50,199 nucleotides of DNA from Ignavibacteriota bacterium (lineage in GTDB: Bacteria > Bacteroidota > Ignavibacteria > UBA10030 > UBA6906), in assembly GCA_016218065.1 (NCBI GenBank), contig JACRFA010000056.1, positions 1-50,199 on the forward strand, read 5' to 3'. The notes beneath the pieces are model-generated. The model saw only the letters and a list, made by a program, of their open reading frames with translations, ran no database searches and was not told the origin of the DNA. A program made the position numbers and the translations under genes. The stretch's first letter is position 1, and the number at the start of each line of letters is the position of its first letter. Shown here piece by piece: positions 2,797-46,820 of this stretch.

Positions 2797-3054
2797 TTAT
2801 TTGCTTATCAGCCTATCATAATCGGCATGTGAGCCAATCCAGAGCCACAAGAGTCCGCCAGTCGCATCGACAGCAATAGCGCGATAATGTTGTCCAACTC
2901 TTGCAGACCAAAATCGACCGACTTTCTTGAGATGCAGCGACGGGTGCTGCGGATCGGACTTGAGAAGCGCGAAAGACTTGTCTGCCAGTCTTCGAACCTG
3001 TAAAGGGAGGCGGAAATAGGATCGCCAAAAGTCTGTGTCAGCGTAATGGTTCAC
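2797..3054 (-). CDS. RelE/ParE-superfamily toxin
   Basis: An 85-residue protein with the compact RelE/ParE fold signature: N-terminal helices (FWRSYFRLPLQVRRLADKSF), a central LHLKKVGRFWSARVGQHYRAIA strand region and a C-terminal strand carrying WLWIGSHADYDRLI. Members act as ribosome-dependent mRNA endonucleases or gyrase inhibitors; HYRAI...GSHADYD resembles the mRNA-interferase branch. It starts with GTG overlapping the antitoxin stop by four bases (GTGA), the classic antitoxin-first arrangement. Target not determinable here. Confidence 0.82.
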   Translation of the reverse strand: MNHYADTDFWRSYFRLPLQVRRLADKSFALLKSDPQHPSLHLKKVGRFWSARVGQHYRAIAVDATGGLLWLWIGSHADYDRLISK

Positions 3055-3251
3055 AATGGCGTGGAATGACCGCCAGCGTGGCGACGTAACGCCTCGTCTG
3101 CAAGTCGGTCGAGTTTTCCGGCGTTCACATCAGCTTCGAACTGCTCGTCCCATGTTTTCCAATCGCGCTCGACAAGCCAATCGCGCAACTCAGCAAATTC
3201 CCGTTCAGACAAATTAGAAATTTCAGCTTGCAGCTCTTTGACTCTCGACAT
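3051..3251 (-). CDS. Antitoxin of the RelE/ParE-like pair
   Basis: A small acidic helical protein that precedes and overlaps the toxin gene. It reads SRVKELQAEISNLSEREFAE, then a Trp- and Asp-rich part (WLVERDWKTWDEQFEADV) and a basic tail. Two ATGs compete, at 3255-3257 and 3249-3251. I chose the second because AAGGA lies six bases upstream of it and directly abuts the first. The gene would both neutralise the toxin and repress the pair. It begins 59 bases after the end of the ATP-grasp-like gene, so it may also be read through from that operon. Confidence 0.75.
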   Translation of the reverse strand: MSRVKELQAEISNLSEREFAELRDWLVERDWKTWDEQFEADVNAGKLDRLADEALRRHAGGHSTPL

Positions 3252-3309
3252 GATCATTCCTTAGTTGAGATTCTGGATGAATATACCTTCGGCTGTACTC
3301 AAATTCAAA

Positions 3310-4518
3310 TCATGCTTTTGCACGCAGAGGAACATACAATCCCGACGAACTTCCTACCCATGCCATGTTCTTGTTGTGGTCCACGCCCATCATTTTGCCG
3401 CGACCCATGCGGACAAGATTTGCGACGGGCGTCAGCGATCCGCCTTCAGGCCAAATGAACATTACGCGGACTTCCGCCTTCGTTCCGCCGTGGGGCGTTT
3501 GGACGAACGCGCCGTACTCAACTTTTTCCTGCAGAATGTAGCCGCGCTTCATGTGGTCGGGCACAGCTTGCAGTTCCTCGCGCGTGGGTCCGACAATGAC
3601 GCCGCTGCCTGCGAACGAGAAGAGCGGCTTCATTACCCAATTCTGTAGATCGTCCGGAAGCGTCTTCAGTTCGTTGAGGAAGATTGTTTTCGGGACAGTC
3701 GGATGATGAATGAACGGAAGCGAAAATTTGCTGATGCGAAAGAACCAGTTCGGGTGTCCAGCCCATTCCACTTCAAGCTCATCACAGAAGCTGAACGGAA
3801 GCTGCGCGTCGATCTTCGAAAGCTCGTCGGCGATTGCACGATTGTAGATGCGATGAATCGGAACGAGGCGACCGTCGCGACGATAGAGCAGCTTGCTTCC
3901 TTCCTTCACCACGTCGCGGATATTGACTGTTTGCGTTCCGCAGATTCTATCCGTGAGAATGAAATCGCAGCGCGTCTTCTGACGGTCGGGATCGATTTCC
4001 ATCAGCACAACATTTTCCGGATCATGCGTGCCGAGAACAGCCGTCCTGAACAAAGTATAGTATTGCTCGAGGTCCATGTCGTTGAGCAAACATGTTGCTT
4101 CGTGAGGCAAGCCGAAAGTCTCTTTGAACAACATGGACTGCACGGGCTGGAACGCGAACAGAGTCGGGAAGCCCTGCAACTCAATCAACCGCGGAGCAAA
4201 TCCGCCATCGGGAAGCTGCACGATACCGAAATCCACCGCGATAAACATCGGATGCTCGAGCTCGTGCGGCACATTGAAGTCGTGCGGTATCGTTCGTCCG
4301 GCGGCGGCATGGTATTCGGGATTGTTCACAAGCTGCAAAACGATTTCCGATCCCGACTCCACCATCGCTTGCATCAGCTCACTCGGAATGAAGACGGGCG
4401 TTTCGGAAATTCGGAATTCGATATGTGCGCCACATACCGCGTCGAGGCGTTTGAGGAAGCTGCGGTACTTCGCTTCGGTAAAGTTCGTGTTGTAGTATTC
4501 ACGCAGGTGAGGGATCAT
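3310..4518 (-). CDS. ATP-grasp-like ligase, probably circularly permuted
   Basis: A 402-residue cytosolic protein without signal peptide. NWVMKPLFSFAGSGVIVGP (about 293-310; K297 and the GSG turn) looks like an ATP-grasp nucleotide loop, and YILQEKVEY (E331) like its hinge. A possible metal-binding LIELQGFP (about 111-118) and RRDGRLVPIHRIYNR (about 213-227) come before this loop, an order seen in circularly permuted ATP-grasps such as glutathionylspermidine-synthase relatives. It would join a carboxylate to an amine using ATP; the substrate is unknown. It follows vapC by 10 bases and the cluster of two other ligases and an M29 peptidase, so it probably belongs to the same pathway. Family call is moderately sure. 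Confidence 0.6.
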   Translation of the reverse strand: MIPHLREYYNTNFTEAKYRSFLKRLDAVCGAHIEFRISETPVFIPSELMQAMVESGSEIVLQLVNNPEYHAAAGRTIPHDFNVPHELEHPMFIAVDFGIVQLPDGGFAPRLIELQGFPTLFAFQPVQSMLFKETFGLPHEATCLLNDMDLEQYYTLFRTAVLGTHDPENVVLMEIDPDRQKTRCDFILTDRICGTQTVNIRDVVKEGSKLLYRRDGRLVPIHRIYNRAIADELSKIDAQLPFSFCDELEVEWAGHPNWFFRISKFSLPFIHHPTVPKTIFLNELKTLPDDLQNWVMKPLFSFAGSGVIVGPTREELQAVPDHMKRGYILQEKVEYGAFVQTPHGGTKAEVRVMFIWPEGGSLTPVANLVRMGRGKMMGVDHNKNMAWVGSSSGLYVPLRAKA

Positions 4519-4528
4519 CGTTGTGTGC

Positions 4529-4966
4529 TTACCGTTGGGTGGCAGTTAGCTCGCCTATCAGAATCACTCTGATCTCCTCTATCGCCTTGAGCTTGCTATC
4601 GTTCGTGATGAAAGCGTCGCACTTCTCAGCAAGCGCCGCTCCAATCTGGAGGGCGTCTAAGCCTCGCAGAAACGAATAGCGTGCCCTGAGTTTCGATGCG
4701 TTCTTTGCGATCTCGACAGTAACATCGGAGGGAAGGATTTGATATTGAAGAAAAAACGAACTGAGGTCATTCAACAGTTGAAAATTGTTGTTGCGATATG
4801 GTTCGACGGAGAATTCCATGATTGAAACCACACTTGTACATAATTCGCCTCCCCCCGAGTCAATGTCTGCAAGAATAGCTGTGGTGATCGGCGAGAATGC
4901 CGGATGTTTCTCAAGGTGATAGATCAGGAAGACGGAATCGAGGAATGCCCGTTCACAATCTATCAT
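4529..4966 (-). CDS. VapC-type PIN-domain toxin
   Basis: A 145-residue PIN nuclease, normally cutting tRNA or rRNA when free of antitoxin. The acidic metal-binding residues are in place: D10 (AFLDSVFLIYHLEKHP), E51 (SIMEFSV), D104 (RGLDALQIGAAL) and D123 (AFITNDSKL). Its start lies inside the antitoxin gene (14-base overlap). Ten bases after its stop the ATP-grasp-like gene begins, and the antitoxin starts ten bases after the M29 peptidase stop, so this module sits seamlessly inside a ligase operon. Confidence 0.9.
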   Translation of the reverse strand: MIDCERAFLDSVFLIYHLEKHPAFSPITTAILADIDSGGGELCTSVVSIMEFSVEPYRNNNFQLLNDLSSFFLQYQILPSDVTVEIAKNASKLRARYSFLRGLDALQIGAALAEKCDAFITNDSKLKAIEEIRVILIGELTATQR

Positions 4967-5177
4967 CGCTGCGCATTCGGTTTATGTAGTCTTGAGCATC
5001 CTCTCCCCAGTAGTGGGGGGCGATGCCACAATATTTCATGGCGCGCACAAGAGCCTCTTCCCTCGATCTCCTTCTCTTCTTGAGCTGCATGTAGAGTTTA
5101 TCTTGTGCATCTACATCGAGCTTTTCTATTTCACCAAGCAGGCGATTGATCTCGCTTTGTGTTGCATTATCAGCCAT
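4953..5177 (-). CDS. Antitoxin partner of VapC
   Basis: A 74-residue charged protein: an N-terminal helix (TQSEINRLLGEIEKLDVDAQ), a basic stretch KKRRRSREEAL, then an acidic C-terminus (YWGEDAQDYINRMRSDDRL) of the kind that plugs a PIN active site. The 14-base overlap with vapC supports the assignment. No specific DNA-binding family is recognised. Confidence 0.72.
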   Translation of the reverse strand: MADNATQSEINRLLGEIEKLDVDAQDKLYMQLKKRRRSREEALVRAMKYCGIAPHYWGEDAQDYINRMRSDDRL

Positions 5178-5186
5178 GAGTTCACC

Positions 5187-6206
5187 CTAAATCAAAAACT
5201 CCCCTCGTTCCATGATCTTCTGTCCGTCAATCCAAATATCGAACTTTGTCCCGACAACATCAATGTGCGTGGATGACGACCAATCGGCGCCGGTGTGCTC
5301 GGAGTACGGATGGCCAAACGCAATGTGAACGCCGGGAATCTTTTCATCCTGCAGGATGTGCCCAATGACGTGCTTGAGTTGGATGTTTGTGCCGATGGCG
5401 AACTCACCGACGCGGTCGCTGTTCTTGTCGGTGTGGCAATACTCCCAGAACTCGCGCTCCAGTTCCTTGTTGTCGCACCGTGCGCTCACCATGCGGCTGT
5501 CTTTGATTTCAATCGAGACGGGCGTGTCGTTGAGGTCGCCGTACTTTGCGCAGAGATAGTCGCCAACAACGCCGTCGACGATGAACGTGCCGTTCAGTTT
5601 CGCCGGCGACGTGAAGATTTCTCCGCCGGGGAGATTGCCCCATTTGTCGGGCGAAATAATGCCGCTCGTCTTGAGCCACTTCAACTTCGGACTGAGGTCA
5701 GCGGTGATGTTTGTGCCGAAGGGGGACTTGCAGACGACCGTGCGTGCGATGCGCGCCAGGTTCCAGATGCGCGTACTGATTTCGTCCACCTTGGTGAAAT
5801 CGGCTCGCATCCCATCCGTCATGATCTGCCGGTTGATGTTGATCATGTGGCCGTGCCGGATGCGATGGTCGGTGACCACCCTCGTCATTTGCATGCGCGT
5901 GCGCAGCTCGCCCGTTTGTCCCCAGGCCGCGTACACGCTCACCTGGCTTGTGGCAAGATCATCAAGAATCGGCTGCGGCATGTCCGTGTGCGGGCGAGGG
6001 GCAAAATCTTCGAGAAGAAACTTGGTGCAGCGGGCGCCAACCTTGGCAACTTCGCTGCAGATCGCGTCTGCGATGTCGTGCGTTCGCTCGTCGGTGATGA
6101 CAGTGACTTTTTCATGCGGCTTGACGCGCAGACACACGTTGACGGCGTTGTACGCACCCTCAATCAAATCTTCATCAACCATCACATCGGTCGTCCCAAT
6201 GTTCAT
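5187..6206 (-). CDS. M29-family metallo-aminopeptidase
   Basis: A 339-residue protein of the AmpS/PepS/aminopeptidase T family, which removes N-terminal residues with a two-metal centre. The family's late metal ligands appear in order: RVGEFAIGTN (Glu), KIPGVHIAFGHPYSEHTG (His, Tyr) and SSSTHIDVV (His, Asp); the N-terminal Rossmann-like part has LRVKPHEKVTVITDERT. It is somewhat shorter than the usual ~400 residues. It overlaps the GCS2 gene by four bases (ATGA), so it is translationally coupled to a ligase. This suggests it trims or recycles the peptide-like product, or processes its substrate. Confidence 0.88.
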   Translation of the reverse strand: MNIGTTDVMVDEDLIEGAYNAVNVCLRVKPHEKVTVITDERTHDIADAICSEVAKVGARCTKFLLEDFAPRPHTDMPQPILDDLATSQVSVYAAWGQTGELRTRMQMTRVVTDHRIRHGHMININRQIMTDGMRADFTKVDEISTRIWNLARIARTVVCKSPFGTNITADLSPKLKWLKTSGIISPDKWGNLPGGEIFTSPAKLNGTFIVDGVVGDYLCAKYGDLNDTPVSIEIKDSRMVSARCDNKELEREFWEYCHTDKNSDRVGEFAIGTNIQLKHVIGHILQDEKIPGVHIAFGHPYSEHTGADWSSSTHIDVVGTKFDIWIDGQKIMERGEFLI

Positions 6207-7342
6207 TGCAGCGTCGAGGAGAGGATGGTTTGGGGAGTTTCAAGCCCGACCTTTGTCTCATCGATGATGTAATCGACGACTGCTTTGAAGTCGCCCGTCT
6301 GTTCCCAGACGCGTAGTTGGCGCTCGGCGCCCGTTCCCATCTCGAGCATCTTGTGGATGTGGTTGATCTCCTGCCGGCTGTCCAGCTCGTCAATGACATC
6401 ATCAACAAATTGCAGGAGTTCGTAAATGAGATCGCGTGCCGGAAGTTCCATCTGTCGCCCGAAGTCGATGAGCTTGCCATGAACGCCGTAACGGCTTGCG
6501 CGCCATTTGTTCTCCATAATCAGCAAGCGGCGGTAGAGACGAAATCCCATGTTTGAGGAGTAAAGATTGTAGAGCTTCACGATCACCGCCTGCATCAGCG
6601 CCGCGAGAGCTATTGTCTCGTCGGCGCGCATCGGGATGTCGCAGATGCGAAACTCCAGCGTGTCGAAGAACGGATGTGGGCGCATGTCCCACCAGATCTT
6701 CTTCGCGTTGTCGATGCACTTTGTCTTGATGAGAAGATTGACGAAGCTCTCGTACTCGCCGTAGCTCTGGAAATAGTCAGGGATGTTCGTGCGTGGAAAT
6801 TTGTCGAATACTTTGCACCGGTACGACATCAGTCCGGTGTTCCGTCCCATCCAGAATGGCGAGTTGACCGACAGGGCCAGAATGTGCGGCAAGAAATATC
6901 GTGCGGCGTTCATCAGATGAATCGTCGCTTCTTTGTCTTAGATACCGACGTGCACGTGAATACCGAAGATCAGAATTGCGCGAGCAACATGCTGCATTTC
7001 TTCAACCATCGTGTGATAGCGTTGATCGGGGAAGAATCCCTGGCGGTGCCAGTCGGCAAAAGGATGCGTTCCGGCTGCAGCGAGTCGCAAACCGTTATCG
7101 TGTGCCAGTTGCACCATGTTGCGCCGCAACTCGAAGACTTCTTCCTTCGCCTCCTTGATGTTCTTGCAGATGCCGGTCCCGACTTCAACAACCGATTGAT
7201 GCATTTCGGGCTTCACGCGTTCCTGTAGGCGAAGCTTCCCCTTCGCAATGATCTCCGCGTTGATATGCGATCGCAAATCCCGCGTCAGGGGATCGATCGT
7301 CATGAATTCTTCCTCGATGCCGAGTGTAAAACTGGGGCGCAT
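6203..7342 (-). pseudogene. GCS2-family carboxylate-amine ligase with an in-frame TAA
   Basis: The frame of 380 codons matches the YbdK/EgtA-like GCS2 family (usual length about 370-380). It starts LGIEEEFMTIDP and contains VVEVGTGICKN, AAAGTHPFADW, IFGIHVHVGI, NSPFWMGRNTGLMSYR and IPMRADETIALAALMQ. TAA at 6938-6940 interrupts it immediately after HVHVGI; in the family Glu-Asp follows, and DKEATIHLMNAAR continues in the same frame. One G-to-T change (GAA to TAA) explains it. The intact enzyme would join glutamate or another acid to an amine using ATP. It overlaps the M29 gene and follows the ATP-grasp gene by 15 bases. A sequencing error, true nonsense mutation or readthrough are all possible. 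Confidence 0.85.
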
Positions 7343-7357
7343 AGTCGTTCCTCCGCT

Positions 7358-8329
7358 CTATTTCCTGCTTTGTGCCTTCGCGTATTTTGTCGAATCGGCG
7401 TTGCCATTCAAAAACCACGACCACCGGAGTTCCTTCACTTCGCGCGTGTTTGCCAACGCTTTCGTGATGCACATCTCTGCCATCGCATTTACCATCCACG
7501 TAAAATTCTCCGCGCCGACGGAATGGTAATCTGCATCGGGCGCCGGATTGAGAAAATCAATCGCGTACGGAATTCCGTCGCGCACCGCAAACTCAATTGT
7601 GTTCATGTCATAGCCAAGCGTGCGACAAATGGTGAGACAATCTCTAATGATGCGCTGCTCGAGATCGGGCGAGGGCGGCGTGTTCGGTTTTACGTAGCGC
7701 ATGTCGTGCGGCTGCTTCGGATCGTAGCGCATGATGTGTACCTTCTCCTGTCCAATGCAGTAGCAACGATAGTAATCTTCGAACTCAATCCCCTCTTGCA
7801 GCGTCATCACGATGTCGCCGGTCTGATGGTAGAAGTGGAAGAAGTCGCCCTCGTTATGACACTTGTACACGTGCTTCCATCCGCCGCCGCTGTGCGGCTT
7901 GAGAAATGCCGGGAAGCCGACATACTCGAACACATCTTTCCACTCAAGAGGATAATGAAGATTCCGGAACGATTGCGACGTCGTTTCGGGCGGATGAGTG
8001 TATGAAGGGAGCAGAACCGTTTTCGGAATCGCGACGCCGAGCTTCGACATCAACGCGTAGTTGAAGAACTTGTCGTCGGCGCTCCACCAGAAGGGATTGT
8101 TCACGACGGCGGTTCCGTTGAGCATCGCATTCTTCAAGTACGAACGATAGTAGGGAACATCCTGCGAAATACGATCGACAATCAGATCGTACTTGACCGG
8201 CTCGGCCATGACAGTGATGCCGAGATCGACGTACTCGGCAATCACGCCCTGGTTCATTTCGTTGATGCGAGCAACGACAGCGCCCGGAAATGTATTCTCC
8301 ATGCCGAAGAGAAAGCCGACTCGTTTCAT
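7358..8329 (-). CDS. RimK/D-Ala-D-Ala-ligase-like ATP-grasp enzyme
   Basis: A 323-residue ATP-grasp ligase. GFPAFLKPHSGGGWKHVY (K144 and the glycine loop) binds ATP. The C-terminal lobe has TIEFAVRDGIPYAIDFLNP with the metal-binding residues E246, D258 and N261, followed by the family-like tail NPAPDADYHSVG. The enzyme would form an acyl phosphate and then an amide or peptide bond; substrate unknown. I chose the ATG at 8327-8329 because the 23 upstream residues of the longer frame are not ATP-grasp-like. First gene of the ligase-peptidase operon, diverging from pepF. Confidence 0.85.
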   Translation of the reverse strand: MKRVGFLFGMENTFPGAVVARINEMNQGVIAEYVDLGITVMAEPVKYDLIVDRISQDVPYYRSYLKNAMLNGTAVVNNPFWWSADDKFFNYALMSKLGVAIPKTVLLPSYTHPPETTSQSFRNLHYPLEWKDVFEYVGFPAFLKPHSGGGWKHVYKCHNEGDFFHFYHQTGDIVMTLQEGIEFEDYYRCYCIGQEKVHIMRYDPKQPHDMRYVKPNTPPSPDLEQRIIRDCLTICRTLGYDMNTIEFAVRDGIPYAIDFLNPAPDADYHSVGAENFTWMVNAMAEMCITKALANTREVKELRWSWFLNGNADSTKYAKAQSRK

Positions 8330-8619
8330 GCAAACCCCATTCTCAGTGGTGTATGAATGACAGCTCTTTGTTACGTTGTGAAGGAATCGTGGGATCACGG
8401 TCTACGACCTCGTAGAGGAGCAGATCCCGCAATACAGAGAAGAGAAGCGAAAAGCTTGGCTCATGATAGAAAATTCACCTGCGAGAGTCAAGACATTGGA
8501 CATCGAGATATCTCGTGATGAACAACAACCCGAATATCTCTCCGGTTGCCCTTTCGCCCCCTTCATCGTACATTGGCTACCAGATTTTTCCGACACGTGT
8601 TCCTTATCCGGTGAGAAAA

Positions 8620-10509
8620 ATGATGCTCTCAAAAGAAAACGCTTTCCCCCTGAACAGATTTCACTCCACTGTTTCTTCAAAAGAGTTAATTGGTGAACGT
8701 GACCGATCGAAAATTCCCGACACATTCAAATGGAATCTTGCGGACATCTATCCGAACGAGGACGCATGGCGCGACGCAAAGCTGCGGCTGACAGCGCGAC
8801 TGTCGGAAATTGAGAGCTATCGCGGAAAGGTCGCCGGTTCACCCGATGCGCTGTATTGTTGTCTCGATCTCGTGAGCCAACTCAGCAAGGAATTCAACCG
8901 ACTCTATTGCTACGCGAGCATGAACTCCGATCTCGATACGCGCAACGCGACGTATCTCGGCATGGAGCAGGAGGTGGGTCAGATCGGGACCGACCTCGGC
9001 GCGAAGTCGTCGTTCATTGAGCCGGAAATTCTGAAGTGCGAGCAGTCGGCGATCGATGAGTTCATTCGTCGTGACTCGCGGCTCGAAGTGTATCGCCATT
9101 ACCTCCACGAGACCATCCGTCGGAAAGCGCATACCGGCACGGAGGGCGAAGAGAAGATTATTGCTGATGCGGGACTCATGAGCGACACGCCCAACAGCGT
9201 GTATGGCATTTTCTCGAATGCAGATTTTCCGTTTGCTGAAATTGAGACGCACGACGGCAAGAAAGTGAAGCTCGACCAGGCGGCGTTTGCCTTGCACAAG
9301 AGCGCGACCGACAGAGATGACCGGAAGAAAGTGTTCAGCGCATACTTCGGCAAGCTGAACGAGTTTCATAGGACGTTTGGCGCCAACCTCTACGCCGAGA
9401 TCAAGAAGAACATGTTCTACATGCGGGCGCGGAAGTATAACTCGTGCCTGGAGCATGCTCTCGACGGCGGGAACATTCCCATTGCCGTCTATACCGGACT
9501 CATCGATAACGTGAATGCGAATCTCGCGACGTTCCACCGCTACTTGAACCTTCGCAAACGTCTGCTCGGCGTCGAGCAGCTTCACTACTATGATCTTTAC
9601 GCCCCGCTGGTGAAGGACATCGATCTGCAGTACTCCATCGAAGAGGCGTACAAGCATACGCTTGCATCATTGTCTCCGCTCGGAGAAGAGTATCTCTCAG
9701 TCTCGCAAACATGCTTCAATGATCGTTGGGTGGATGTGTTCGCGAACGAAGGGAAGCGATCGGGGGCATACAGCAATGGCGCCGTGTACGACGTTCATCC
9801 GTACATCCTCCTGAACTACAACGCGAAGTATGACGACGTGAGCACGCTGGCGCACGAACTTGGTCACACGATGCACAGCTATTTCTCCAACAAGCATCAG
9901 CCGTACCCCACGTCGCACTACTCGATCTTCGTCGCTGAAGTTGCTTCGACATTCAATGAAGCGCTGCTCATGGACTACATGCTCAAGACCATCACCGACG
10001 ACAACATCCGGCTCTCGCTGCTCGGTAATTATCTCGACGGCGTGCGGGGCACGGTGTTCCGCCAGGTACAGTTCTCAGAATTCGAGTTGAAGATTCATGA
10101 GCTGGCGCAGAAGGGGGACGCGTTGACGGGCGAACGGTTCAGCGAGTTGTACAATGATCTGGTGAAGAAGTACTACGGCCATGATCAGGGCGTGTGTATT
10201 GTTGATGATGAAATCAAAGTCGAGTGGGCGCACATTCCGCATTTCTATTATCACTTCTATGTCTATCAGTACGCGACATCGTTCACCGCCTCCGCGGCTC
10301 TCTCCGAGCAAGTGTTGGCGGGCGACAAGGAAGCGACGCAGCGGTATATGAACCTGCTTGCGGCCGGCGGGTCCGATTATCCGATTGAGCTGCTGAAGCA
10401 AGCGGGCGTCGATATGACGACGCCGTATCCGTTCGAGCTGACGATGAAGAAGATGAATCGCGTGATGGATGAGGTGGAAGAAATTCTCGCGAAAACGCAA
10501 CGGCGGTGA
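8620..10509 (+). CDS. pepF: Oligoendopeptidase F (M3B), cytosolic paralogue
   Basis: A zinc oligopeptidase of about 630 residues. The motif HELGH (H412, E413, H416 from this start) binds zinc, and FNEALL downstream supplies the third ligand; the substrate-gating KRSGAYSNGAVYDVHPYILL and HIPHFYYHFYVYQYATSF are typical of M3B. GGTGAG five bases before the ATG at 8620 decides the start; the longer frame from 8515 adds 35 residues without family character. No signal peptide, so it should degrade peptides in the cytosol. The next gene is a close paralogue with a signal peptide. The divergent position next to the ligase cluster is suggestive but not proof of a link. Confidence 0.92.
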   Translation: MMLSKENAFPLNRFHSTVSSKELIGERDRSKIPDTFKWNLADIYPNEDAWRDAKLRLTARLSEIESYRGKVAGSPDALYCCLDLVSQLSKEFNRLYCYASMNSDLDTRNATYLGMEQEVGQIGTDLGAKSSFIEPEILKCEQSAIDEFIRRDSRLEVYRHYLHETIRRKAHTGTEGEEKIIADAGLMSDTPNSVYGIFSNADFPFAEIETHDGKKVKLDQAAFALHKSATDRDDRKKVFSAYFGKLNEFHRTFGANLYAEIKKNMFYMRARKYNSCLEHALDGGNIPIAVYTGLIDNVNANLATFHRYLNLRKRLLGVEQLHYYDLYAPLVKDIDLQYSIEEAYKHTLASLSPLGEEYLSVSQTCFNDRWVDVFANEGKRSGAYSNGAVYDVHPYILLNYNAKYDDVSTLAHELGHTMHSYFSNKHQPYPTSHYSIFVAEVASTFNEALLMDYMLKTITDDNIRLSLLGNYLDGVRGTVFRQVQFSEFELKIHELAQKGDALTGERFSELYNDLVKKYYGHDQGVCIVDDEIKVEWAHIPHFYYHFYVYQYATSFTASAALSEQVLAGDKEATQRYMNLLAAGGSDYPIELLKQAGVDMTTPYPFELTMKKMNRVMDEVEEILAKTQRR

Positions 10510-10987
10510 CGTAACGATTGCTGACGGGCTTATCAGGTTGTGAAAAACTCCTACTTCTTTATCCACGAAGTTCACGCCTGCGTGCCGAAACGCACTACGG
10601 CGTGCAGGCACGAATGAACACGAAGAAAAAGTTTTGGTTTGTATCAGAAGAACCTTCATGCACATTCGTGCCAGCACGCCGAAGTGCCTTGCCGTCCGGC
10701 AGGCGGCCGGTCGGAAGCCCATCAAACAGAAGTCAGAGGTCGGGAGTCAGATTCAGTGTGCCGCGCGAATTGCGACGACTCATGAGATTCTTCTCTACGA
10801 GAACGAGGCGGCACCGAAACGCGCTCCTCAGTGTAAAGATGCATCACGCTTGACAATGGTGACTTCGTTTTACTTTTGGCTTAAGCCCTTCGTTTGCAAC
10901 TAATCGCCTTCCGGTTTCGTACACACGGTCAACCTCTCCGCACGTAACTACTGGTCAACAATCAAAAACAACAAGAAAGGATTCATC
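10510..10987. other. Repeat-containing spacer between the two oligopeptidase genes
   Basis: No gene seen. It holds an inverted repeat at 10576-10609 (GCCTGCGTGCC against GGCGTGCAGGC), a GC-rich palindromic patch at about 10688-10712 (CCGTCCGGCAGGCGGCCGG), and degenerate octamer-like repeats near 10731-10752 (AGTCAGAGGTCGGGAGTCAG). No clean terminator with a T-run follows pepF. Confidence 0.5.
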
Positions 10988-12862
10988 ATGCGGCGCTCTA
11001 TGCTATTGGTTGCGTTTGCCGTTTCACTCATCGTCTCCGGCTCAGCGCAGGAACGGGACAGAGCTAAAATTTCCGACAAGTGGAAATGGAATCTCATCGA
11101 TCTGTATCCGTCGGATGAAGCCTGGATGCAAGCGAAGGAGAAATTCAAGGCTGAGTATCCCAAGCTCGGGGAGTTCAAGGGAACACTTGGTTCGTCGGGG
11201 AGCCAACTGCTGAAGTGTCTGGATTTCGGATTCAGTCTCTACAAAGAGTACAATCGTTTGTACCTGTACACGAGCTTGCAATCGGATCAGGACACGCGCG
11301 ATCCGAAGTACCTTGGGTTGGTGCAGGACATGGGACAGCTCGGCGCTGACTTAGGCGCGAAGGGATCGTTCATCGAGCCGGAGATTCTGGCAATCGATCA
11401 GGCGAAAGTTGCCGCGTGGCTATCGCAAGAGAAAGGTCTCGGCGTGTACAAGTTCTATATCGACGACATTCTTCGTCGCAAACCGCACACAGGCACGGAA
11501 GCTGAAGAGAAGATCATTGCCGATGCCGCGTTGGTGTCGGACGCTGCATCGAACACGTACGGAATCTTCACGGACGCAGACTTTCCGTATCCGACCGCGA
11601 CGTTGAGTAACGGACAGTCGGTGAAGCTCGACAAAGCGGCGTATGAGCTGTACCGCGCCGGCTCGAACCGCGACGATCGGCGGATTGTGTTCAAGGCATT
11701 CTTCGAGAAGCTGAACGAGTTTCGCACAACGTTCGGCACCATGATGTATGGCGAGGTGAAGAAGAACATGTTTTTCGCGAAGGCGCAAAAGTACAACTCG
11801 GCGCTCGAGCGTTCGGTGAATGGCGCGAACATTCCTGTGCAAGTGTACAAGAGTCTCGTCGAGAACGCGAACAGCAATGTGAACACGCTGCACCGCTATC
11901 TCTCGCTGCGCAAGCGGCTGCTCGCCGTTGACACGCTGCACTACTATGATCTCTACGCGCCGCTGCTCAAGAGCGTTGACCTCACGTATCAGCCTGAAGA
12001 AGCAACGAAGCTTGTGCTGGCATCGCTCTCGCCTCTCGGCAAGGGATATGTCGATGTCGTGAACAAGGCGCTCAATGAACGCTGGCTCGATTGGTATCCG
12101 ACGACGGGAAAACGATCGGGCGCGTACTCCAACGGCGGCGCGTACGACGTGCACCCGTACATGCTGCTCAATTATAACGGCAAGTACAACGACGTCCGCA
12201 CGCTGACGCATGAACTCGGGCACACGATGCAGAGTTATCTCTCCAACAAAGCGCAACCGTACCCGACAGCGGGCTATCCGACATTTACAGCCGAGGTGGC
12301 GTCGACATTCAACGAAGCGCTGCTGAATGATTACATGCTGAAGACTGTCAAGGACGACAACGTGCGTCTCTCGCTTCTGGGAAGCGTACTCGAAGGACTG
12401 AAGGGAACATTCTTCCGCCAAACGCAGTTTGCGGAATTCGAGATGCGCATCCACGAGCTTGCAGAGAAGGGCGAGTCGCTGACCGGAGACAAGCTGAACG
12501 AACTCTATCTCGAGATCACGAGAAAGTACTACGGCCACGCGAAGGGCGTGTGTGTGGTTGATGATGAGATCAAGGCGGAGTGGATGTTCATCCCGCACTT
12601 CTACTACAACTTCTACGTCTATCAGTATGCGACTTCGTTCACCGCATCCGCTGCGCTTTCCGAGCCTGTGCTCGCAGGCAACAAGGATGCGACGAAGCGC
12701 TACATGGAATTCATTTCATCCGGCGGCTCGGACTACGCCATCAACCTGCTGAAGAAAGCCGGCGTTGACATGACGACATCGCAGCCATTTGAGATTACGA
12801 TGAGGAAGATGAACAAGGTGATGGATGAGATGGATAAGCTGCTGGACAAGTTGAAGAGATAG
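10988..12862 (+). CDS. Exported oligoendopeptidase F paralogue (M3B)
   Basis: A 624-residue M3B zinc peptidase, alignable along its length with the preceding pepF. Zinc ligands are H408 and H412 in HELGH, with FNEALL after it. It differs by an N-terminal signal peptide (RRSMLLVAFAVSLIVSGSAQ, cleavage after SAQ or nearby), so it should work in the periplasm or outside. AAGAAAGG stands eight bases before the ATG. The substrate loop KRSGAYSNGGAYDVHPYMLL is retained, so both copies look active. The pair probably arose by tandem duplication with relocation of one product. Ends convergent with the glycosyltransferase gene. Confidence 0.9.
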   Translation: MRRSMLLVAFAVSLIVSGSAQERDRAKISDKWKWNLIDLYPSDEAWMQAKEKFKAEYPKLGEFKGTLGSSGSQLLKCLDFGFSLYKEYNRLYLYTSLQSDQDTRDPKYLGLVQDMGQLGADLGAKGSFIEPEILAIDQAKVAAWLSQEKGLGVYKFYIDDILRRKPHTGTEAEEKIIADAALVSDAASNTYGIFTDADFPYPTATLSNGQSVKLDKAAYELYRAGSNRDDRRIVFKAFFEKLNEFRTTFGTMMYGEVKKNMFFAKAQKYNSALERSVNGANIPVQVYKSLVENANSNVNTLHRYLSLRKRLLAVDTLHYYDLYAPLLKSVDLTYQPEEATKLVLASLSPLGKGYVDVVNKALNERWLDWYPTTGKRSGAYSNGGAYDVHPYMLLNYNGKYNDVRTLTHELGHTMQSYLSNKAQPYPTAGYPTFTAEVASTFNEALLNDYMLKTVKDDNVRLSLLGSVLEGLKGTFFRQTQFAEFEMRIHELAEKGESLTGDKLNELYLEITRKYYGHAKGVCVVDDEIKAEWMFIPHFYYNFYVYQYATSFTASAALSEPVLAGNKDATKRYMEFISSGGSDYAINLLKKAGVDMTTSQPFEITMRKMNKVMDEMDKLLDKLKR

Positions 12863-43281: not shown

Positions 43282-43380
43282 TGCGGAAGAAAAGCTCTTC
43301 GATAGTGCTTTCTCTTCAACGTGACGTTCCTTGCATTCGAACGATGCTTCGCAGTCTCATGCTCTCCCGGGGATCCGTGT

Positions 43381-44028
43381 ATGAAAGCTTTTAAGTACGC
43401 GTGCTTCATCAGCTACTGCCATGGACAAGGCGCGCTCGTCAGCAGTTTCATCGAGCAGCTCAAGACATCGCTCAAAGCGTGTCTCGAACCGTACTTCGAT
43501 ACCGACGAGTGCGTCTATATCGATGAAGATCGGTTGAAGTCGGGCGCGCTCTACAACACAGGACTTGCGGATGCGATTTGCCGAAGCATGTCCATGATCG
43601 TCGTGTACATGCCGAAGTATGAGCATCACTCGTACTGTCTGCGCGAGTACACGGCGATGGAGCGATTGGAGGCGGAACGGTTCAAGCTGAGCGGCAACGG
43701 CGCCGCGCAGGACCGCGGCATGATCATCCCGATTCTCTTCCGGGGCCGCGCCGACGATTTGCCCGAACGCATCCGGAAGCACCGGCACTTCTGCGACTTC
43801 TCAAAATTCACCACTGCAACCAGCGACATTCTCAAGAACGAAGAGTTCGTCAGAAAGATCGAAGAGATCGCGAGTTACATCTACGATCTCTCGAAAGAGT
43901 TCGATTCGCTCGCCGCAAATCCGTGCAGCAATTGTTCGTCGTTCCAGCTTCCGGCAGAAACGGAAGTGAAGCCCTGGCACGAAACCATTCCCGTCACGCC
44001 GTTCGTCTTCCGTCAACAGAATCCATGA
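43381..44028 (+). CDS. TIR-domain protein (putative NADase effector)
   Basis: A 215-residue protein whose first ~165 residues form a TIR domain: AFKYACFISYCHGQGALVSS, EPYFDTDECVYIDEDRLKSG, ICRSMSMIVVYMPKYEHHSY and, at the usual catalytic position, Glu89 in SYCLREYTAMERLEAE. Bacterial TIR proteins cleave NAD+ or make cyclic ADP-ribose products. The remaining ~50 residues are low in structure signs. The start at 43381 fits the domain; a longer frame from 43321 adds 20 unrelated residues. It overlaps the ATPase gene by four bases (ATGA). It recalls the TIR proteins paired with KGGXGR ATPases in Actinobacteria. Confidence 0.87.
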   Translation: MKAFKYACFISYCHGQGALVSSFIEQLKTSLKACLEPYFDTDECVYIDEDRLKSGALYNTGLADAICRSMSMIVVYMPKYEHHSYCLREYTAMERLEAERFKLSGNGAAQDRGMIIPILFRGRADDLPERIRKHRHFCDFSKFTTATSDILKNEEFVRKIEEIASYIYDLSKEFDSLAANPCSNCSSFQLPAETEVKPWHETIPVTPFVFRQQNP

Positions 44029-46820
44029 CCCCATACGATCCGACCGGCAAAGTCATCACGTTCTATTCATACAAAGGCGGAACAGGCCGTTCGATGGCGC
44101 TTGCCAACGTTGCCTGTTTGCTCGCGCAGCGCAGCGATGTGCATCGCGGCGTGTTGATGATCGATTGGGATCTGGAAGCGCCGGGGTTGCATCGATTCTT
44201 TCACGATCGCTTCACGAGAAGATTTCCTGCTTCGTCTCTCGCCAACGGCGAGAAAGACTTCGCGCAAGCGCCGGGTCTGATCGATTTCTTCGTCGAGCTT
44301 GAGGCGCGCGTACGCGAGGCCACATCCGACGGCAAGCCGCAATCGGAGCCGCAGTCCGATGAACTGATGGCAAAGGTCGATCTGCGCAAGTATGCTATTG
44401 AGACGGACGTTCCATCGCTGTCGCTCATGAAGGCCGGCGCGTTTGATCAATCGTACTCCAGGCGGGTAACGACATTCAATTGGGAAGACCTCTACAACCG
44501 CTCGCCGTACATCATGCAAGCGTTCGCGGAGCGGCTTGCGCGCGACTACAGTTTCGTGCTCATCGATTCGCGGACAGGCATAAGCGACGCGAGCGGCATC
44601 TGCACAATGTTGCTTCCCGAAAAGCTCGTCGTTGTGTTCACGCCCAATCGGCAGAGTCTTATGGGTGTGGACGACATTGTGCAGCGAGCGACCGAGTACC
44701 GGCGGCAGTCCGACGATCTGCGACCGCTGATCGTGTTTCCGCTTCCGTCGCGCATCGATTTGTCGGAGAAAGAGCTGCAAGCCTGGTGGCGGTCGAACAT
44801 GCAAAGTCCCGACGTGCTTGCATACGAGCCGCTCTTTCAGCGCATGTTCGAGAACGTGTACGGGCTGAAGCATTGCGATCTCGCCGCCTATTTTGATGAA
44901 GTGCGCATTCAGCATTTTCCTTTCTATTCTTACGGAGAGAAGATTGCCGTTTTGCAGAAGGGAGAATCGGATCGTCTATCGCTTGCGCGCAGCTACGCAA
45001 CGTTCACGACCTGGCTCGTCGATCGTCCGTGTCCTTGGAAGGAAGAAGTTCCCGTTCAGGTTCCGACTGCAACCGCCGATGAGGTGAAGCTGGCAGAAAC
45101 CGCGTTTGCGCGTCTCTCATCTGACGAGCAAAAAACACTGCAGCGCATTTTCCTCCGTCTCGTGCGCATAGCTGAGTCGGGCGAGCGGGAGAATGCCAAT
45201 CGAGGATTGAAGGCAAGAATTTCGGATTTTGACAGATCGTCGTTGCCCCTCGTTCGGTCGCTGCAGGAGGAACGGCTTCTGATTGTCGAAGCCGACAAGG
45301 TGAGCGGCGAAGAGACTGTGCAGATCGCGAGTGATGGTTTGATTGATGCATGGCCGCGTTTGAAGACGTGGCTGAAGGAGGACAGAGATTTTCTCGTCTG
45401 GCGTCAGCAGTTGCGGACCAACATGGCGCAGTGGGAAAAATCCAAAGACCACGGGGCGTTGCTGAGCGGCGCGCCGCTCGGAGAAGCGCAGCGATGGCTT
45501 GCAAGCCGGGGATCGGATCTCAGCGCGAGTGAACATGAGTACATCGTCGGCAGCGCCAACGTCGTGAGAAAAGGAAAGCTGAACACCTGGCTTGCTTTGC
45601 TCGGGTTCTTCATCATTGTGGCCGGCATTGCGTTGTGGCAGTATTTCCGAACGCAGCGCGAGCAGGCTGAGTTCTCGAACGTTCTTTCTGACGGATACTC
45701 CTTGTACAAGAACGGCCAGTTGGATTCAGCGATTGTCCGGTTCGGCGACGGGATTGCGATGCGCGACCAAAGCGCAGAGGCGTACTATGCGCGCGGCTCG
45801 GCGCTGCTCAGCAAACGTGACTACAAAAAGGCCGCGGCAGATTTCAGTCAGGCGTTGCAGCGCAAGCCGGATTACGCCGATGCGCTGAACGACCGCGGCG
45901 TTGCGTCTCTGAATCTCGGCGACACGACGCAGGCGATCCGCGACTTCGAGAAGGCGATTGAAGTAAGTCCGAACAGCGCTCTGCCGTACACCAACCGCGG
46001 CATGATCTATTACCGCGAGCAGAATTATTCCAAGGCGCTTGAGTTTCAGGCGAAGGCGGTTTCACTGAACCAGAATTCCTGGGTCAGCTATATCGAACGC
46101 GGCAACGCGTACCTGGAGCTTAAAGACACTGCGAAGGCTCTGCAGGATTACGGCCACGCGATAGACTTGCAACCCGATTCCGCGCTTGGATACTACAACC
46201 GCGGCGTTGTGTATCGCGCGAGCGGCGCGTACGATCTGGCGCTTGCGGAACTTGCCCGCGCGCTCGAGCTGAAGCCGGGCTACGCGGAGGCGTATATGAA
46301 TCGCGCCATCATCTACTTCAAACGCCGATCGCGTCAGGCGGCGATCGATGAGGCGAATCGAGCCTTGCAGTTGGCGGCCGACTCCGTCTTGATTCGCGAA
46401 GCAAACGACTCGCTCCGTTCGTGGGGCGCGGCCGCGCCGATCCGCATCCCGACAGCTCAGGTGACACGCGTGTTCGTTCATTACAATGATCGGCGCGACT
46501 CATTACTGGTTCTTCGCGTCAACTTCGCGCTCGCAGGCAGATTCAAGGTGCAGCCGTCGCAAGTCGTCACGCAGCGTACATTCGGCGACGTGCGGTACTA
46601 CTATGACGCAGACAAGTCAAACGCCGAAGCAGTCCGGCGCCTCGTGCAGAAAACACTGATGGGAGAAGGCATTGCGCTCAGCATCCAGCTTTTGTACTTA
46701 GGCGAATCGTACGCGCAGAACATCCGGGTGAACGCGATGAGGCGTCTTCCGGCCATGGGAACAATCGAAGTCTGGCTCCCGTCACTCCGCGACTATCAAT
46801 CCATGCAGATGGCAAAATGA
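44025..46820 (+). CDS. KGGT P-loop ATPase with STAND-like segment, membrane helix and TPRs
   Basis: A 931-residue multidomain protein. Residues 1-330 are a ParA/MinD-type ATPase: VITFYSYKGGTGRSMALANV carries the signature Lys17 but Arg22 in place of the second Walker lysine; MIDWDLEAPG and FVLIDSRTGISD follow. Residues ~360-515 resemble the winged-helix end of STAND proteins (SLPLVRSLQEERLLIVEA, LIDAWPRLKTWLKEDRDFLV, LGEAQRWLASRGSDLSASEH). One membrane helix is at about 522-544 (WLALLGFFIIVAGIALWQYF), then about six TPRs (555-790), then a ~110-residue tail of unknown fold. A sensor or scaffold role in the four-gene system is inferred. It is coupled by ATGA overlaps to both neighbours. Confidence 0.85.
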   Translation: MTPYDPTGKVITFYSYKGGTGRSMALANVACLLAQRSDVHRGVLMIDWDLEAPGLHRFFHDRFTRRFPASSLANGEKDFAQAPGLIDFFVELEARVREATSDGKPQSEPQSDELMAKVDLRKYAIETDVPSLSLMKAGAFDQSYSRRVTTFNWEDLYNRSPYIMQAFAERLARDYSFVLIDSRTGISDASGICTMLLPEKLVVVFTPNRQSLMGVDDIVQRATEYRRQSDDLRPLIVFPLPSRIDLSEKELQAWWRSNMQSPDVLAYEPLFQRMFENVYGLKHCDLAAYFDEVRIQHFPFYSYGEKIAVLQKGESDRLSLARSYATFTTWLVDRPCPWKEEVPVQVPTATADEVKLAETAFARLSSDEQKTLQRIFLRLVRIAESGERENANRGLKARISDFDRSSLPLVRSLQEERLLIVEADKVSGEETVQIASDGLIDAWPRLKTWLKEDRDFLVWRQQLRTNMAQWEKSKDHGALLSGAPLGEAQRWLASRGSDLSASEHEYIVGSANVVRKGKLNTWLALLGFFIIVAGIALWQYFRTQREQAEFSNVLSDGYSLYKNGQLDSAIVRFGDGIAMRDQSAEAYYARGSALLSKRDYKKAAADFSQALQRKPDYADALNDRGVASLNLGDTTQAIRDFEKAIEVSPNSALPYTNRGMIYYREQNYSKALEFQAKAVSLNQNSWVSYIERGNAYLELKDTAKALQDYGHAIDLQPDSALGYYNRGVVYRASGAYDLALAELARALELKPGYAEAYMNRAIIYFKRRSRQAAIDEANRALQLAADSVLIREANDSLRSWGAAAPIRIPTAQVTRVFVHYNDRRDSLLVLRVNFALAGRFKVQPSQVVTQRTFGDVRYYYDADKSNAEAVRRLVQKTLMGEGIALSIQLLYLGESYAQNIRVNAMRRLPAMGTIEVWLPSLRDYQSMQMAK

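What the first reader, a model, noticed from the sequence alone, without database searches (positions are those of the whole stretch)
3310..8329. Amide-ligase and peptidase cluster for an unknown peptide-like product
Seen: a RimK-like ATP-grasp gene, a GCS2 ligase gene (15 bp later), an M29 aminopeptidase (4 bp overlap), then after a TA pair a second ATP-grasp-like protein whose motif order suggests circular permutation, all on one strand with tiny gaps. Known: ATP-grasp and GCS2 enzymes make amide bonds in small peptides and modified amino acids, and comparative genomics has linked such ligases with peptidases. Inference: the cluster makes, and with the M29 enzyme trims or recycles, a short glutamate-like peptide or thiol.
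Basis: partly seen in the sequence, partly recalled or inferred. Interest (0 to 1): 0.7.

Follow-up and report, generated by a model that had tools for sequence, protein, structure and literature searches.

The report
Conserved unexplained amide-ligase gene cluster
Neighbouring genes in this bacterium encode three different enzymes that join molecules by amide bonds plus a peptide-cutting enzyme; the same set recurs across Acidobacteriota, Ignavibacteria and Bacteroidota, so it is almost certainly a real pathway, but what it makes is unknown.

Summary
One strand (8329 to 3310) encodes a RimK-like ATP-grasp ligase, a GCS2 ligase (PRK13515), an M29-type metallopeptidase, an inserted PIN toxin-antitoxin pair and a 402-residue protein without a Pfam model. 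That protein is a full-length permuted ATP-grasp (pLDDT 95.5; Z 26.9 to the peptide-spermidine ligase YgiC). The gene order recurs in Acidobacteriota, Ignavibacteria and Bacteroidota, usually behind an esterase gene. In 296 genomes the two ATP-grasps occur together in 89 and singly in 23 (p=6.5e-51). In other lineages the M29 slot holds a class-I amidotransferase-fold protein, never both, with at least three switches on the tree. Where the permuted ligase is missing, another permuted ATP-grasp can take its place. So this is a real, modular ligase-plus-hydrolase pathway; the product is unknown, probably a short peptide or amide conjugate. A primary thiol is less likely (bacillithiol synthase is present; GCS2 is dispensable in relatives). 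In the window GCS2, the only copy, carries one in-frame TAA. Known kind (ATP-grasp/GCS2 neighbourhoods), new variant.

The parts
7358..8329 (-). RimK-like ATP-grasp ligase (323 aa); one of two core ligases
   Evidence: TIGR00768 8.7e-07, sub-threshold; AlphaFold pLDDT 86.9, Z 22.3 to RimK, 21-22 to LysX/ArgX; E246, D258, N261, K144, P145 and GGG148-150 invariant in 41 homologues
6203..7342 (-). GCS2 / YbdK-type carboxylate-amine ligase, PRK13515 group; frame broken by TAA at codon 135 (6938-6940)
   Evidence: PF04107 1.9e-65; PRK13515 543.7 bits vs cut-off 371; only copy in the genome; intact frame in relatives
5187..6206 (-). M29-type metallo-aminopeptidase-like protein (339 aa)
   Evidence: PF02073 2.2e-15; profile match to AmpS 1zjc 1.3e-05, to NicX dioxygenase only 0.07; E196, E268, H294, H314 and D316 invariant in 10 homologues
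4953..5177 (-). probable antitoxin of the inserted TA pair
   Evidence: ORF overlapping the PIN gene; no Pfam match; spacer 668 bp here against 63 and 67 bp in two same-genus relatives
4529..4966 (-). PIN-domain toxin, inserted between the M29 gene and the permuted-ligase gene
   Evidence: PF01850 3.9e-12; spacer comparison
3310..4518 (-). permuted, GspS/YgiC-type ATP-grasp ligase (402 aa), no Pfam or NCBIfam family; second core ligase
   Evidence: AlphaFold pLDDT 95.5, pTM 0.93; VIA-align Z 26.9 YgiC, 25.3 human GS, 25.1 GspS; non-permuted LysX only Z 8.8 over 169-397; D96, E113, Q115, K264, K297, Q330, R370 invariant in 61 homologues
8515..10509 (+). divergent M3 oligopeptidase (PepF-like), linked to the cluster in the window's own family only; possible accessory
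   Evidence: PF01432 3.5e-71; M3 gene near the cluster in L020-L025 and L027

Best explanation
This is a conserved multi-ligase pathway that builds a short peptide or amide-conjugate metabolite without a ribosome or NRPS. Core: a RimK-type ATP-grasp and a permuted GspS/YgiC-type ATP-grasp, each activating a carboxylate as acyl phosphate and joining it to an amine. A GCS2 enzyme adds, in most species, a (probably gamma-glutamyl) amide. The gene just before the permuted ligase encodes a hydrolase partner, either an M29 metallo-aminopeptidase or a class-I amidotransferase-fold cysteine enzyme, which most likely trims or recycles the conjugate; for the amidotransferase type, feeding ammonia to the ligase is the alternative. 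An alpha/beta esterase usually completes the set. Shown: gene identities, fold, conserved linkage, co-occurrence, slot exchange. Inferred: chemistry, order of steps, product class. In the window species GCS2 has a recent nonsense codon (or the assembly has an error), so the pathway may run there without it.
For: Order EST-RimK-GCS2-(M29 or GAT1)-permuted ligase across three lineages: of 105 distinct loci with at least 4.2 kb upstream, 69 have RimK+GCS2+permuted ligase on one strand within 8 kb; 41 of these have M29, 16 GAT1, 0 both; EST in 49 of the 105. Co-occurrence of the two ATP-grasps in 296 genomes: 89 both, 4 and 19 single, 184 neither, p=6.5e-51, including genomes where they are unlinked. 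Slot switches on the permuted-ligase tree: at least 3 forced by supported branches. Genome level: GAT1 in 19 of 40, cluster-type M29 in 8 of 40, both 0 (Fisher p 0.0036, not corrected for kinship). Most RimK-only genomes that I read carry EST-RimK-[another permuted ATP-grasp]-GAT1. Fold relatives make peptide-amine or peptide-amino-acid bonds: YgiC/YjfC peptide-spermidine ligases (cited in PMC12568646), Cp1B (PMC12568646). Precedent for a GCS2-like ligase family found with either of two unrelated hydrolases: PMC2588565.
Against: No substrate or product is known. The residue aligned by motif with the arginine of the RxD motif of GspS/YgiC is Q, T, A or another residue and never R in 61 homologues, and ExN is ExQ, so activity could be altered or lost. 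About a quarter of the loci (26 of 105) have the permuted ligase without any of the other genes nearby. GCS2 is absent from four relatives, and GAT1 occurs without GCS2 in at least one genome (G071), so a fixed GCS2-product/hydrolase pairing is not strict. A class-I amidotransferase with a typical oxyanion strand may supply ammonia rather than hydrolyse a product.
Confidence: 0.55

Rival explanations
1. The cluster modifies a protein (or a peptide tag on it): the RimK-like enzyme adds amino acids to a protein tail, as RimK does to ribosomal protein S6, and the permuted ligase and hydrolase extend, cap or remove the tag.
For: RimK is the top fold match and LysX/ArgX, which work on the carrier protein LysW, are next; no small-molecule transporter recurs in the clusters examined.
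Against: No small conserved ORF that could be a carrier or target recurs among the neighbour families (ORFs of 70 aa or more only, so a shorter one would be missed); GCS2 and GspS-type enzymes with known activity use small molecules.
Confidence: 0.2
2. The permuted ligase makes a carboxamide from ammonia delivered by the GAT1 protein (as CarA feeds CarB), and M29 lineages use free ammonia or another donor; the product is a C-terminally amidated peptide.
For: GAT1 is next to the permuted ligase in nearly all GAT1 clusters, in some even where RimK-GCS2 sit elsewhere; GAT1 keeps C108, H211, E213 and a GGPG oxyanion strand typical of glutaminases; Pfam GATase.
Against: M29, which cannot plausibly supply ammonia, fills the same slot; nine Ignavibacteria genomes keep GAT1 away from the cluster; some lineages have neither.
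Confidence: 0.2
3. It is a thiol pathway: GCS2 makes gamma-Glu-Cys and an ATP-grasp completes a glutathione-like tripeptide, possibly joined to a polyamine as in glutathionylspermidine.
For: GCS2 family and closeness of the 402-aa fold to glutathione, homoglutathione and glutathionylspermidine synthetases.
Against: BshC present, so a bacillithiol-type thiol is available; nspC-type spermidine route not found in the genome, other routes untested; GCS2 lost in relatives that keep the two ATP-grasps; broken in the window; PRK13515 is named only carboxylate-amine ligase.
Confidence: 0.12
4. Unrelated genes that merely share a neighbourhood by descent.
For: Adjacency could be inherited within one order.
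Against: Linkage across Acidobacteriota, Ignavibacteria and Bacteroidota; co-occurrence of the two ATP-grasps even when unlinked, p=6.5e-51; repeated slot exchanges.
Confidence: 0.02

Closest known systems
E. coli YgiC/YjfC peptide-spermidine ligases and Gss glutathionylspermidine synthetase
   Same: Whole-length permuted ATP-grasp fold (Z 25-27); both ATP-binding lysines, Q, D, E and the late R correspond by motif. Gss also pairs synthetase with amidase, as the slot neighbour here may.
   Different: About 13% identity; RxD is QxD/TxD/AxD and ExN is ExQ in the 61 homologues; lies in a multi-ligase cluster; no fused amidase; acceptor unknown.
Amidoligase gene neighbourhoods of ATP-grasp, GCS2 and hydrolase genes (Iyer, Burroughs, Aravind and colleagues, 2009; from memory, paper not held)
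   Same: Combination of ATP-grasp and GCS2 ligases with peptidases or amidotransferases in one neighbourhood.
   Different: Could not check whether this precise set was listed there; the M29/GAT1 exchange and the replacement of one permuted ATP-grasp by another were found here.
RimK / LysX / ArgX ATP-grasp ligases
   Same: Fold of the 323-aa protein, Z 21-22; ATP-grasp motifs.
   Different: 16% identity; below the family cut-off; metal motif reads DxxN rather than ExN; no RpsF- or LysW-like partner in the cluster.
PRK13515 / YbdK-family carboxylate-amine ligases
   Same: Full-length match above the curated cut-off; YbdK has gamma-glutamyl-cysteine ligase activity (title cited in PMC2588565).
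   Different: Substrate of PRK13515 unknown; the window copy carries a stop codon.

Membership tests
ATP-grasp superfamily, permuted GspS/eukaryotic-GS type (402-aa protein) | whole-domain fold match to solved members | tested here: met
   Z 26.9 (344 residues, rmsd 3.3) to YgiC; 22 Foldseek hits with E<=0.001, all of this type
ATP-grasp superfamily, permuted GspS/eukaryotic-GS type (402-aa protein) | nucleotide-binding lysines and metal-binding acid residues conserved | tested here: met
   K264, K297, D96, E113, Q330, R370 invariant in 61 homologues; correspondence with YgiC/Gss by motif, only the C-terminal part by profile alignment
Glutathionylspermidine synthase family (PF03738) | score above the family cut-off | tested here: not met
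   12.4 bits, cut-off 29.3
Glutathionylspermidine synthase family (PF03738) | Arg two residues before the metal Asp (RxD), and ExN motif | tested here: not met
   R position is Q 39, T 12, A 5, I 2, V 2, C 1 of 61; N is Q in all (placed by motif)
RimK family (TIGR00768) | score above curated cut-off | tested here: not met
   28.6 bits vs 143.4
ATP-grasp superfamily, RimK-like fold (323-aa protein) | fold match to solved members | tested here: met
   Z 22.3, 264 residues, rmsd 3.0 to 5zct
GCS2 / PRK13515 carboxylate-amine ligase | score above curated cut-off | tested here: met
   543.7 bits vs 371, frame read through the TAA as X
GCS2 / PRK13515 carboxylate-amine ligase | intact reading frame | tested here: not met
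   TAA at codon 135
Peptidase family M29 | score above cut-off and five conserved metal ligands | tested here: met
   56.9 bits vs 27; E196, E268, H294, H314, D316 invariant, placed by the AmpS alignment for E196, E268, H294 and by motif for the rest
Peptidase family M29 | peptidase activity | not testable with these tools
   needs assay
Peptide-polyamine ligase (function of YgiC) | polyamine as acceptor | not testable with these tools
   needs assay; one spermidine route (nspC) not found in the genome

The most novel reading that the evidence does not exclude
A widespread but unrecognised small-molecule pathway of Acidobacteriota, Ignavibacteria and Bacteroidota makes a new class of peptide-amine conjugate, using a permuted ATP-grasp family whose active site has replaced the usual RxD arginine and ExN metal motif, with exchangeable unrelated hydrolases that recycle the product.
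Probability: 0.3. Interest if true: 0.75.

Novelty: new variant of a known kind. Interest (0 to 1): 0.52.

Why it matters
Conservation and near-obligate pairing of two ligases point to a metabolite of general use in these abundant soil and sediment bacteria, and a defined five-gene set in a cultivable host makes it directly testable. The repeated exchange of an M29 peptidase for an amidotransferase-fold enzyme is an unusual natural clue to the reaction.

Tried and rejected
R2K-clade ATP-grasp for the 323-aa protein: only a sub-threshold R2K_2 hit (14.6 bits, cut-off 26.2); RimK is the better fold match. NicX-type dioxygenase for the M29 protein: E 0.07 against 1.3e-05 for AmpS, and the glutamate ligands are kept. 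Anbu-type operon with COG2308 permuted ATP-grasp: no CP_ATPgrasp Pfam match was listed for the 402-aa protein, although the replacing protein in RimK-only genomes weakly has one. Defence system: no PADLOC match. Idea that the hydrolase occurs only with GCS2: contradicted by G071 (GAT1 in L208, no GCS2). Decay of GCS2 before the stop codon: not supported; GCS2 is the best conserved of the four genes against G001 (88.7% aa identity, changes mostly at third positions). Iyer et al. 2009 is not in the library; COG-number and keyword searches for this set found nothing.
Full report
What is there. The window is contig C294 of a 5.17 Mb draft genome, 97.5% complete, that groups with Ignavibacteria-type bacteria. 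On the minus strand, from 8329 down to 3310, lie a RimK-like ATP-grasp gene, a GCS2 gene 15 bp further on, an M29-type gene overlapping it by 4 bp, a small antitoxin-like gene, a PIN toxin gene and a 402-codon gene. Family scans give GCS2 (1.9e-65; PRK13515 543.7 bits over a cut-off of 371), M29 (2.2e-15) and PIN (3.9e-12); the RimK-like gene has only a sub-threshold match and the 402-codon gene none of significance. The GCS2 frame is interrupted by one TAA at codon 135, window 6938-6940. It is the only GCS2 in the genome, relatives have an intact frame, and GCS2 is otherwise the best conserved gene of the four against a same-genus genome. The stop is therefore recent or an assembly error.

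The 402-residue protein. AlphaFold with 61 sequences gives pLDDT 95.5 and pTM 0.93. All 22 Foldseek hits with E<=0.001 are permuted ATP-grasp ligases of the glutathionylspermidine / eukaryotic glutathione synthetase type. VIA-align gives Z 26.9 over 344 residues to E. coli YgiC, 25.3 to human glutathione synthetase and 25.1 to GspS, whereas unpermuted LysX and GshB align only from about residue 165 on (Z 8.8 and 8.2). D96, E113, Q115, K264, K297, Q330 and R370 are invariant in 61 homologues. The residue that by motif takes the place of the arginine in the RxD motif of YgiC and Gss is Q, T, A, I, V or C, never R, and their ExN is ExQ. The placing of residue 94 rests on motif order, since profile alignment with YgiC/Gss covered only the C-terminal part and weakly.

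The other enzymes. The 323-residue ligase folds as RimK (pLDDT 86.9; Z 22.3) and next LysX/ArgX. The M29 protein keeps the five metal ligands and matches AmpS rather than NicX.

Conservation. Of 15 relatives' regions, ten hold all four genes in this order and an eleventh is cut by a contig end; two have only RimK and the permuted ligase. A scan of one genome per species found at least 588 loci for the permuted ligase; the best 80 come from Acidobacteriota, Ignavibacteria, other Bacteroidota and one bin named Ectothiorhodospiraceae. In these the same order recurs. Two further genes recur: an alpha/beta esterase in front of RimK, and a class-I glutamine amidotransferase-fold protein (GAT1) in the place of M29. 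Among 105 distinct loci with at least 4.2 kb upstream, 69 have RimK, GCS2 and permuted ligase together; 41 of these have M29, 16 GAT1, none both (loci were picked for similarity, not at random). In a tree of 72 permuted ligases the M29/GAT1 label needs four changes, at least three of them forced by well-supported branches. At genome level GAT1 was found in 19 of 40 and cluster-type M29 in 8 of 40 genomes, never both; nine Ignavibacteria clusters without either gene belong to genomes that keep GAT1 elsewhere.

Co-occurrence. In 296 genomes of the phylum 89 have both ATP-grasps, 4 only the permuted ligase (one a fragment), 19 only RimK and 184 neither (Fisher p 6.5e-51, kinship not corrected). 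In several Bacteroidota RimK-GCS2 and the permuted ligase are on different parts of the genome, so the pairing is not only inherited adjacency. In most of the RimK-only genomes read, GAT1 follows RimK with a gap of about 1.5 kb; in the two whose gap I read, it encodes a different permuted ATP-grasp (about 450 residues, one of them weakly like CP_ATPgrasp_1/2), with visible RxD and ExN motifs. In four genomes of one genus of the window's family the permuted ligase persists without any GCS2, with RimK next to it in three; none of the three tested had M29 or GAT1, and the fourth keeps an M29 remnant.

Interpretation. The invariant core is the pair of ATP-grasp ligases; GCS2, the slot hydrolase and the esterase are add-ons. 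Enzymes with this permuted fold are known to join a peptide to spermidine (YgiC/YjfC, as cited in PMC12568646), an epoxy acid to an amino acid (Cp1B, PMC12568646), or gamma-Glu-Cys to glycine (glutathione synthetase). I therefore infer a short peptide or amide conjugate as product. That two unrelated folds exchange in one slot fits a cognate hydrolase for the product; PMC2588565 reports a similar pattern for another GCS2-like ligase family, found with either an amidotransferase-like thiol peptidase or a gamma-glutamyl cyclotransferase. Supply of ammonia by GAT1 is the main alternative. A primary thiol is less likely because bacillithiol synthase BshC is present and GCS2 is dispensable; a polyamine acceptor is neither supported nor excluded (nspC not found, other routes not tested).

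The window's own peculiarities. The TA pair is an insertion between the M29 gene and the permuted-ligase gene: the spacer is 668 bp here but 63 and 67 bp in two same-genus genomes. No esterase of the cluster type was found beside this cluster; a distant paralogue is elsewhere in the genome. Divergently transcribed M3 oligopeptidase genes flank the cluster, a linkage seen only in this family. The permuted ligase of this family groups with those of Acidobacteriota rather than of other Ignavibacteria, which would fit lateral transfer of the cluster (midpoint root).

Novelty. ATP-grasp/GCS2 neighbourhoods are a known kind; I recall a 2009 survey but could not read it, so I cannot say whether this set was already listed. 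The unclassified permuted ligase with its altered active site, the M29/GAT1 exchange and the replacement of one permuted ligase by another appear undescribed in what I could search.

Noticed in passing
window 4529-5177: PIN toxin-antitoxin pair inserted inside a metabolic operon; spacer is 63-67 bp without it in same-genus genomes.
   Followed up: yes
window 2797-3257: Second small TA-like pair (ParE-like, PF24732) directly downstream of the cluster on the same strand.
   Followed up: partly
window 8515-12862: Two consecutive M3 oligopeptidase genes, divergent from the cluster; M3 next to the cluster in the window's own family only.
   Followed up: partly
window 3310-4518: Permuted-ligase tree places the window's family with Acidobacteriota, not other Ignavibacteria, suggesting lateral transfer of the cluster.
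   Followed up: partly
L209:5576-6931, L210:5177-6700: A different, about 450-residue permuted ATP-grasp stands in for the 402-residue one in genomes that have RimK-GAT1 clusters.
   Followed up: partly
L188:5792-6523 (own genome, contig C15): Distant paralogue of the cluster esterase, away from the cluster.
   Followed up: no
window 43321-46820: Gene with a TIR/SEFIR-like start (CFISYCHGQG) followed by a MinD-like ATPase with TPR-like repeats (read by eye, not searched); possible signalling or defence pair.
   Followed up: no
window 7358-8329: Metal motif of the RimK-like ligase reads D258-x-x-N261 instead of the usual ExN, invariant in 41 homologues.
   Followed up: no
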